Assembly: GCA_024641505.1 (NCBI GenBank)
Contig: JAHECY010000041.1
Coordinates: forward strand, 1-34,436
DNA: 34,436 nt
Source of the DNA: Gammaproteobacteria bacterium
Lineage (GTDB): Bacteria; Pseudomonadota; Gammaproteobacteria; SG8-11
Direction of reading: 5' to 3'
The notes below the pieces were generated by a model that saw only the letters and a list, made by a program, of their open reading frames with translations, did not search any database and was not told where the DNA came from. Each line of letters begins with the position of its first letter. Positions within the stretch are counted from its first letter, which is position 1. Below, one piece after another: positions 19,619 through 21,908 of this stretch. The translations under genes were made by a program, and so were the position numbers.

Positions 19619-19942
19619 TTAGACGGTGAAACTTTCACCACAGCCGCAGGTATCCTTGACATTGGGATTGTTGAACTTAAATCCCTCGTTCAAACCATCT
19701 TTGCCATAATCAAGCTCGGTGCCGTCGAGATAGACGAGACTTTTAGGATCGATGATGATAGTCACCCCCTTGGCCTCAAACACCGCGTCCTCCGGCGCCA
19801 CCTCATCAACAAACTCCAGCACATAGGCCAGACCGGAACAACCCGTGGTTTTCACTCCCAACCGCAGGCCCACACCTTTGCCGCGATTGGCCAGAAAGGT
19901 CTTGATGCGCTGTGCGGCGTTATCAGACAAGGTTATCGCCAT
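19619..19942 (-). CDS. iscA: A-type Fe-S carrier protein IscA
   Basis: This 107-residue protein begins [17 protein letters not shown] and has the A-type ligands Cys in TTGCSGLAY and the pair in DTCGCGESF. IscA carries iron or Fe-S clusters to targets. ATG 19942 has an AGAGGTAG site that overlaps the iscS stop region. The gap to iscS is only 10 bp. In the canonical operon iscU lies exactly here, so IscA directly follows IscS without the scaffold gene. Confidence 0.96.
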
Positions 19943-19952
19943 ACTGCTACCT

Positions 19953-21170
19953 CTAGTGGTGCGCCGCCCATTGGACAGTGTTGAGATCGATGCCATCCTT
20001 GAACATCTCCCATAACGGCGACATTTCGCGTAGTTTCGCGATTTTGTCATGGACCAGCTTGATAACAAAGTCTACTTCCTGATCGGTAGTGAACCTGCCT
20101 AGAGTAAAACGGATAGAGCTGTGCGCCAATTCATCGCTGCGGCCCAGCGCTCGCAACACATAGGAAGGCTCGAGACTGGAGGAAGTGCACGCTGAACCGG
20201 ACGACACCGCCAGCTCCTTCATGGCCATGATCAGGGACTCCCCTTCCACAAAATTGAAGCTGACATTCAGATTATGTGGCACCCGGTGCTCCAGATCGCC
20301 ATTAAGATAGACTTCTTCAATGTCCTGGAGCCCGTGCCACAGGCGATCGCGCATAGCGCGAACGTGGGCGTTCTCCGACGCAAACTCCTCCCGTGCCAGG
20401 AGAAATGCCTCGCCCATTCCAACGATCTGGTGGGTCGGCAGCGTACCGGAGCGCAAACCGCGTTCATGCCCCCCGCCGTGCATTTGCGCTTCCAGCCGGA
20501 TGCGAGGTTTGCGACGCACATACAACGCGCCGATGCCTTTGGGTCCGTAAACTTTGTGCGCAGACAGTGACAGCAGATCCACTTGCATGGTCGTCACGTC
20601 GATGGGTGTTTTACCGGCACTCTGTGCGGCGTCTACGTGGAAAATTATACCTTTCGATTTCACCAGGGCGCCAATGGCGGCGATGTCCTGAATGACACCA
20701 ATTTCATTGTTAACGTGCATGATCGAAACAAGTACAGTGTCATCCCTTAGCACAGCCGCCAGCTTGTTGAGATCGATCAATCCGGAGGCTTCGGGATCGA
20801 GATAAGTAACCTCAAAACCTTCCCGTTCCAGTTGCCGGCAGGTATCCAGAACCGCTTTGTGCTCGGTCTTGCAGGTAACAATGTGCCGGCCTTTTTTCTG
20901 GTAAAAATGGGCTGCGCCCTTGATGGCCAGATTATCGGATTCCGTGGCGCCGGAGGTCCAAATGATTTCCTTGGGATCGGCGTTGATCAGCGCCGCGACC
21001 TGTTGTCGCGCCAGCTCTACCGCCTCTTCGGCATGCCAACCGTAGGCATGGGAGCGGGACGCAGGATTTCCAAATTCAACGTCAGGCGTAAGATATTCCA
21101 TCATTTTCTTCGCCACGCGGGGATCAACTGGCGTGGTTGCAGAATAATCCATATAAATCGGACGCTTCAT
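19953..21170 (-). CDS. iscS: Cysteine desulfurase IscS
   Basis: This 405-residue PLP enzyme takes sulfur from cysteine for Fe-S clusters and tRNA thiolation. Visible are the PLP-lysine region [13 protein letters not shown] and the active-site loop [17 protein letters not shown] with the persulfide Cys. The C-terminus [20 protein letters not shown] matches housekeeping IscS, so the gene end is intact and the missing iscU is not due to a truncated iscS. The start is ATG 21170 ([19 protein letters not shown]). It is preceded by a 267-bp gap after iscR. Confidence 0.97.
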
Positions 21171-21437: not shown

Positions 21438-21908
21438 TCAATTCGTTGCATGGAATACCCGTTGTTCAATGATTCGTTTCTCCTGGCGCTCGGCCACTTC
21501 CTGAATTGCTCGGTTTTCCACCAAATGTCCAAGACTGATGCCACTGAGAAATTCAAAAATCTTGTCACTGAGATCACACCACAGCTCATGGGTCAGACAG
21601 GAGTCATTATCCTGGCAGTTACCCTTACCTTCACAACGCCGTGCATCAATTTTTTCGTCAACCGCGGTAATTACATCAACCACGGCGATTTGCTTTGCAT
21701 CACGACTCAACCGGTATCCACCACCGGGGCCTCGGGCGCTGGAGACCAGCCCGTTCTTCCGTAATTTGGAGAATAGTTGTTCAAGATAAGACAGAGAAAT
21801 TCCCTGACGTTGAGAAATATCGGCGAGTGTAATCGGGCCCTTGTGATCGTGAATGGCAAGATCCAACATCGCGGTCACCGCATAACGGCCTTTTGTCGTC
21901 AATCGCAT
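21438..21908 (-). CDS. iscR: Fe-S-sensing Rrf2-family repressor IscR
   Basis: This 156-residue Rrf2-type winged-helix regulator ([20 protein letters not shown]) carries the [2Fe-2S] ligands Cys92, Cys98, Cys104 and His107 in [21 protein letters not shown] (identical numbering to E. coli). With its cluster it represses the isc operon; loss of cluster relieves repression. Autoregulation of the downstream genes is expected from the family and the position at the operon head. Confidence 0.97.

What the first reader, a model, noticed from the sequence alone, without database searches (positions are those of the whole stretch)
19943..19952. isc operon lacks iscU, the Fe-S scaffold
iscR, iscS, iscA, hscB, hscA, fdx and iscX are all intact and in canonical order, but only 10 bp separate iscS and iscA, where iscU normally sits. 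The join is clean: iscS ends with a normal C-terminus and iscA has its own ribosome-binding site. HscA/HscB are specialised to act on IscU, so their retention implies that the scaffold is encoded elsewhere, or that another protein has taken over.
Basis: partly seen in the sequence, partly recalled or inferred. Interest (0 to 1): 0.82.

Follow-up and report, generated by a model that had tools for sequence, protein, structure and literature searches.

The report
Relocated iron-sulfur scaffold gene iscU
The bacterium has not lost the protein scaffold on which it builds iron-sulfur clusters; the gene has left its usual operon and sits elsewhere beside a look-alike of the operon's sensor-regulator that lacks the sensor's usual cluster-holding residues, an arrangement that recurs in many gammaproteobacteria.

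Summary
Confirmed: the window's isc operon (iscR-iscS-iscA-hscB-hscA-fdx-iscX) has no iscU, with exactly 10 bp between iscS and iscA. It is no assembly error: a same-genus genome and another genus of the family share the join, as do 37 named gammaproteobacterial genomes found with one strict DNA pattern. The scaffold is encoded in trans: the window's genome holds one NifU_N protein, a full IscU (CGD, YGC, LPPVK, HCS) on contig C47, 26 bp downstream of a second IscR-like regulator ("IscR2", my name). Of 40 distinct split genomes with a located iscU, 37 have an IscR-like gene directly upstream of it, and 36 of those 37 lack the Cys3-His cluster ligands. Four other genomes carry both an operonic iscU and such a pair, so duplication followed by loss of the operon copy is the likely route, more than once. 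In an even class sample, 13 of 122 ISC-bearing genomes are split, in 8 families. Many iscR2-iscU promoters carry a near-consensus IscR type-1 operator, suggesting that cluster-loaded IscR still controls iscU in trans; the window's own genome shows no such site. The role of IscR2 is inferred, not shown.

The parts
19943..19952 (-). 10-bp iscS-iscA spacer where iscU normally lies; ribosome-binding site of iscA
   Evidence: same join in G001, G004 and 37 named genomes
21438..21908 (-). iscR1, [2Fe-2S]-type regulator with Cys3-His motif intact
   Evidence: TIGR02010 210.8 bits, cut-off 207.55; ligands seen in alignment
19953..21170 (-). iscS, cysteine desulfurase (ATG start at 21170)
   Evidence: TIGR02006; only IscS above cut-off in the genome
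19619..19942 (-). iscA, A-type carrier
   Evidence: TIGR02011
19062..19598 (-). hscB, J-type co-chaperone
   Evidence: TIGR00714
17162..19039 (-). hscA, Hsp70-type chaperone
   Evidence: TIGR01991
16811..17149 (-). fdx, ISC ferredoxin
   Evidence: TIGR02007
16594..16794 (-). iscX (likely ATG start; the open frame runs to 16860)
   Evidence: TIGR03412

Best explanation
A complete but split ISC system. Shown by sequence: iscU is missing from the operon and is encoded once, elsewhere in the genome (C47:3402-3806, minus strand), as the second gene of a two-gene unit behind an IscR-family regulator, IscR2, without the usual Cys3-His ligands. Inferred from comparison: an iscR-iscU pair arose as a second copy in an ancestor, its regulator lost the cluster ligands, and the operonic iscU was later deleted several times in different lineages, after which the trans copy is the only scaffold. 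Inferred mechanism: IscS, HscB/HscA (through LPPVK), IscA and Fdx act on the trans-encoded IscU as in the textbook cycle. In many lineages cluster-loaded IscR1 binds a type-1 operator over the -35 region of iscR2-iscU as it does at the isc operon, so the two units rise together when clusters are scarce. IscR2, made together with IscU and unable to bind a cluster in the usual way, acts like a permanently apo IscR and lets the IscU level be set apart from IscS/HscBA.
For: One NifU_N gene in G000. Same block (TPR protein, iscR2, iscU, nucleotidyltransferase) in same-genus G001 and same-family G002, so C47 is not a contaminant. 32 of 37 named join genomes have an IscU elsewhere, 30 of these 32 directly downstream of an IscR-like gene. 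Over 40 distinct split genomes with a located iscU: 37 with an IscR-like neighbour, gap 13-151 bp where measured, 36 of 37 without Cys3-His. All 33 relocated IscU that my expression caught keep CGD, YGC, LPPVK, HCS. Both-state genomes G002, G040, G282, G294; family f1 and family f37 each hold a both-state genome and a split genome. Ten of 14 split genomes lack SufB/SufD matches. Type-1 site of at least 20/25 in 17 of 31 iscR2 upstreams (99th percentile of shuffles 19) against 5 of 266 other upstreams. IscR2 is 98% identical between G000 and G001 at 43% fourfold-site identity, the highest of ten genes.
Against: The window's own iscR2 and iscR1 upstreams score 17 and 16 of 25 for a type-1 site, which is background. 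The 1-Mb genomes L124, L125, L127, L128, L131 also lack it. G290's iscU neighbour keeps Cys3-His. A single-Cys IscR of Rhodobacter sphaeroides is reported to bind a cluster (PMC4618611 passages), and most IscR2 keep one Cys, though not at a shared position. Three split genomes have a lone iscU without IscR2. Five of 37 named split genomes showed no IscU; of these G219 (identical to G077 by contig coordinates) is 95% complete. No expression or binding data.
Confidence: 0.8

Rival explanations
1. Assembly or binning artefact: iscU was dropped from the operon contig by the assembler, or C47 belongs to another organism.
For: The genome is a 222-contig assembly with 3% contamination.
Against: Same join in independently assembled G001 and G004 and in 37 named genomes, including a single-contig record (CP070738.1) and single-contig G121 where both loci lie far apart on one contig; same C47 gene block in G001 and G002.
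Confidence: 0.02
2. Another protein (IscA, SufB or a NifU/SufU type) replaced IscU as scaffold and HscA/HscB act on it.
For: G000 also encodes SufB/SufD-type proteins.
Against: A full IscU with LPPVK is present and is the only NifU_N protein; ten of 14 split genomes have no SufB/SufD match at all.
Confidence: 0.03
3. Simple neutral relocation: iscU was copied next to a convenient promoter and the operon copy decayed; IscR2 is a passenger with no role in regulating iscU.
For: Three split genomes have a lone iscU without IscR2; no shared single Cys among IscR2 groups; no type-1 site in the window's genus.
Against: 36 of 37 IscR-type neighbours lack the ligands across 7 or more families; IscR2 is the most conserved protein of ten compared in G000/G001 despite saturated silent sites.
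Confidence: 0.2
4. IscR2 still senses a cluster through a one-cysteine or non-cysteine ligand set and is a second feedback sensor dedicated to IscU.
For: Precedent: R. sphaeroides IscR with one Cys (PMC4618611 passages). Most IscR2 keep one Cys.
Against: That Cys lies at three unrelated places (wing, helix, C-terminal part) in different groups, and L126, G002, G040, G295 have none.
Confidence: 0.15

Closest known systems
Canonical iscRSUA-hscBA-fdx-iscX operon (E. coli type)
   Same: Same genes, order and flanks trmJ-cysE-isc-ndk as relatives with the canonical operon
   Different: iscU absent from the operon and encoded in a separate iscR2-iscU unit
E. coli IscR and its C92A cluster-free variant (type-1/type-2 regulation; PMC12594620 and PMC6599224, passages)
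   Same: IscR2 aligns over its length with solved IscR (4hf1, E=1e-35) and keeps the DNA-reading helix and wing
   Different: Natural, ancient ligand loss; encoded beside iscU; target sites unknown
Rhodobacter sphaeroides IscR (PMC4618611, passages)
   Same: IscR lacking the three conserved cysteines
   Different: There it is the operon's own regulator in a combined isc-suf operon without IscU; here it is a second paralog beside iscU while the operon keeps a normal IscR
Myxococcus xanthus RisR (PMC9973013, passages and section 6)
   Same: Rewired control of Fe-S biogenesis by an Rrf2-family protein
   Different: RisR keeps three cysteines and controls an intact iscSUA operon

Membership tests
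IscU scaffold (C47 protein) | NifU_N domain over its whole length | tested here: met
   PF01592 3e-53, residues 2-126 of 134
IscU scaffold (C47 protein) | Three cluster cysteines and Asp (CGD, YGC, HCS; numbering C37, D39, C63, C106 recalled) | tested here: met
IscU scaffold (C47 protein) | LPPVK motif recognised by HscA (role recalled) | tested here: met
   present in the C47 protein and in all 46 IscU rows examined
IscU scaffold (C47 protein) | Assembles and transfers a cluster with IscS and HscA/HscB | not testable with these tools
   needs biochemistry
Canonical isc operon | iscU between iscS and iscA | tested here: not met
   10-bp spacer
IscR, cluster-sensing (for IscR2) | Rrf2 winged-helix domain | tested here: met
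   PF02082 3.5e-34; solved IscR best match
IscR, cluster-sensing (for IscR2) | Cys3-His ligands (C92, C98, C104, H107) | tested here: not met
   31 of 31 rows without the cysteines; 40 of 40 caught neighbours without the motif, G290 the exception
IscR, cluster-sensing (for IscR2) | Binds type-1 or type-2 operators | not testable with these tools
   type-1-like sites lie upstream of iscR2 in 17 of 31 loci, but which protein binds is unknown; type-2 sites not enriched
NCBIfam IscR TIGR02010 (for IscR2) | Score above the curated cut-off | not tested
   only the window's IscR1 was scanned with NCBIfam

The most novel reading that the evidence does not exclude
A recurrent regulatory design in gammaproteobacteria: the scaffold IscU is removed from cluster-feedback control at the isc operon and paired with a dedicated cluster-blind IscR paralog, which by competing with, or forming mixed dimers with, cluster-loaded IscR1 sets the IscU:IscS ratio and turns IscU/IscR2 into a separate output of the Fe-S demand signal. 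Repeated loss of the operonic copy suggests that the split state is favoured.
Probability: 0.3. Interest if true: 0.75.

Novelty: new variant of a known kind. Interest (0 to 1): 0.6.

Why it matters
The isc operon is a textbook co-expressed module, and IscU is its centre. A natural, repeated separation of iscU from its partners, always functional by its motifs and usually tied to a ligand-less IscR, gives a ready comparison set for what control of scaffold dose is for, and offers a natural version of the apo-locked IscR that has been studied only as the C92A mutant. It also warns that annotation pipelines scoring ISC completeness by operon will call these genomes incomplete.

Tried and rejected
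Replacement scaffold: rejected, one full IscU exists. Assembly error: rejected. I guessed that G004 keeps iscR2 at the edge of contig C357; the contig end turned out to be iscR1 behind trmJ-cysE, so for G004 no IscU or IscR2 was found, in a 78% complete genome. IscU tree: poorly resolved; the relocated copies do not form one group in any of 200 bootstrap trees, at least two changes forced, so a single relocation is not supported. IscR tree: IscR1 and IscR2 rows need 3 changes at best, one origin not excluded (22% of bootstrap trees), long branches. Type-2 operator upstream of iscR2: not enriched. RNA families near either locus in L031, L032 and window: none. Of 17 class-sample genomes whose IscU is not next to IscS, four (G148, G138, G265, G010) are a different case: iscS has moved and iscU is still near iscA or with hscA; I left them out of the split count. 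G106, G250 and G281 have an IscS-type match but no 130-aa IscU match and were not followed; G219 has the join without an IscU match.

Full report
OBSERVATION. The window lies on contig C84 of a 4.78-Mb, 222-contig gammaproteobacterial genome assembly (99.5% complete, 3.1% contamination; the class is inferred from the record titles of relatives). On the minus strand the order is trmJ, cysE, iscR, iscS, iscA, hscB, hscA, fdx, iscX, ndk. iscS stops at 19953 and iscA starts at 19942, with 10 bp between them. No iscU lies in the window.

THE SCAFFOLD IS ENCODED ELSEWHERE. A search of the whole genome with NifU_N finds one match at E<=0.001: C47:3429-3803, E=1.3e-52. The gene (L031:3402-3806, minus, 134 aa) keeps CGD, YGC, LPPVK and HCS, and matches E. 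coli-type IscU over its length (solved structures 2l4x, 3lvl). The genome has one IscS above cut-off, that of the window. It also has SufB/SufD-type genes on C162 but no SufU or NifU.

C47 IS OF THE SAME ORGANISM. The block TPR protein, hypothetical protein, iscR2, iscU, nucleotidyltransferase is shared with G001 (same genus) and G002 (same family). G001 and G004 (a third genus of the family) share the iscS-iscA join; G002 keeps an operonic iscU as well as iscR2-iscU.

HOW COMMON IT IS. A strict DNA pattern (IscS C-terminus, stop, 0-30 bp, IscA start, IscA Cys motif), checked first on the three known joins, matches 37 stretches of the 84,980-species collection. The titles name only gammaproteobacterial MAGs (one is titled Proteobacteria), among them Thiohalobacter, Thiogranum, Ectothiorhodospiraceae and Methylophaga. 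The isc genes around all 37 joins are in the usual order as far as each stretch reaches. An IscU is found elsewhere in 32 of the 37. In an even sample of the class (274 genomes), 122 have an IscS match at E<=1e-190 and 124 a NifU_N match at E<=1e-36. Comparing the coordinates by eye, 13 of the 122 have iscU away from an otherwise usual operon (G000, G001, G093, G098, G121, G142, G182, G234, G245, G259, G290, G295, G304; 8 families; 11 of 120 without the window's genus). G193 is a further case whose IscS is cut by a contig end, so it is not in the 122. The operons were looked at.

WHAT STANDS BESIDE THE MOVED GENE. I put the two sets together and removed genomes present twice (G093=G078, G142=G079, G182=G068, G193=G065, G304=G062, G219=G077, G001=G063, G004=G087, judged by identical coordinates or contig lengths). 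That leaves 40 distinct split genomes with a located iscU: 32 named, plus G000, G098, G121, G234, G245, G259, G290, G295. In 37 of 40 an IscR-family gene lies directly upstream (gap 13-151 bp where measured, G290 not measured). The three others (G079, G061, G259) have a lone iscU; in the first two it lies near sat. Of the 37 neighbours, 36 lack the Cys3-His motif of cluster-binding IscR and one, G290, keeps it. In the alignment of 31 rows none has a cysteine at the three ligand columns. The operon's own IscR1 keeps them in the window and in the 39 rows from which upstreams were taken, but those rows were found by that motif, so this is not a count. IscR2 keeps the helix SYLEQLF and the wing RGPxGGY; position E43 (recalled as the residue that bars apo-IscR from type-1 sites) is Glu in all but L189, where one inserted residue shifts the numbering.

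ORIGIN. Four genomes hold both an operonic iscU and a pair of IscR-like gene plus iscU: G002, G040, G282, G294. In G294 the neighbour keeps one of the three cysteines, which looks like an intermediate. Family f1 contains G002 (both) and G000, G001, G004 (split); family f37 contains G040 (both) and G219 (join, IscU not found). Other second IscU copies, in G165, G130 and G247, have no such neighbour, and G052's lies at a contig end. The IscU tree forces at least two changes between operonic and moved. I read this as duplication first, then repeated loss of the operon copy.

REGULATION. The published type-1 consensus (PMC6599224, passages) scores at least 20 of 25 upstream of iscR2 in 17 of 31 loci (mean 19.5; shuffle mean 15.8, 99th percentile 19, maximum 20 in 620 shuffles). 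Three of the 31 (L119, L121, L130) are cut short by the contig end. Among 266 other upstreams 5 reach 20, and random slices reach 22 at most. Upstreams of iscR1 reach 20 or more in 20 of 39 rows, which include two genomes twice (L105/L141, L093/L147). Later loci: G245 24, G121 22, G098, G290 and G295 20, G234 19; lone iscU 20 in G259 and G061. Against this, G000 scores 17 (iscR2) and 16 (iscR1), which is background, and G001 iscR2 scores 18. In the sites I read, the operator covers the TTGAC of a likely -35 box (my reading). Since P. aeruginosa IscR without its ligands does not bind isc type-1 sites (PMC6599224, passages) and E. coli IscR(C92A) does not repress PiscR (PMC12594620, passages), the likely binder is holo-IscR1; that is inference.

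CONSTRAINT. Between G000 and G001, IscR2 is 98.0% identical in protein with 43% identity at fourfold sites; IscU is 86.6%, IscS 87.4%, HscB 52.8%. IscR2 is thus under the strongest protein constraint of the ten genes compared, which speaks against a passenger.

PRINT. Searches of the open-access library gave no paper, by title and abstract listing, that describes an isc operon without iscU or a ligand-less IscR beside iscU; subscription journals are not in it. I read passages of PMC9973013 (and its section 6), PMC9628965, PMC12594620, PMC6599224 and PMC4618611.

VERDICT. The gene has moved, not gone. The new part is the recurrent pairing with a ligand-less IscR paralog; its function is open.

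Noticed in passing
L188:4919-6337 (G036:C129): The operonic IscU of a relative is one 472-aa frame in which the scaffold is interrupted just before the YGC cysteine by about 310 aa with weak Hint-domain matches (below Pfam cut-offs) that begins with Cys and ends HN before Cys: an intein-like insert in IscU. A search for intein with IscU listed no paper on one.
   Followed up: partly
L071, L076, L085, L086, L088, L092, L094, L095, L096, L097, L100, L104, L105: A second NifS-like cysteine desulfurase (36-41% identical to IscS) lies between iscR and iscS in many split isc operons, and also in some canonical ones (G005, G037, G049).
   Followed up: no
L144, L145 (G079, G061): A lone relocated iscU without IscR2 lies near sat (ATP sulfurylase) in both genomes, apparently a second kind of relocation.
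   Followed up: partly
L169/L170, L177/L178, L179/L180, L181/L182: The mirror case: iscS stands apart while iscU stays with iscA and/or hscBA (G148, G138, G265, G010).
   Followed up: no
L031:4298-4490 and L032:4482-4690: The non-coding stretch upstream of iscR2 is strongly conserved between G000 and G001 although silent sites are saturated; no Rfam match.
   Followed up: partly
L174:2860-3351 (G290): The one relocated iscU whose IscR neighbour keeps all cluster ligands; that genome has two apparently cluster-binding IscR proteins.
   Followed up: no
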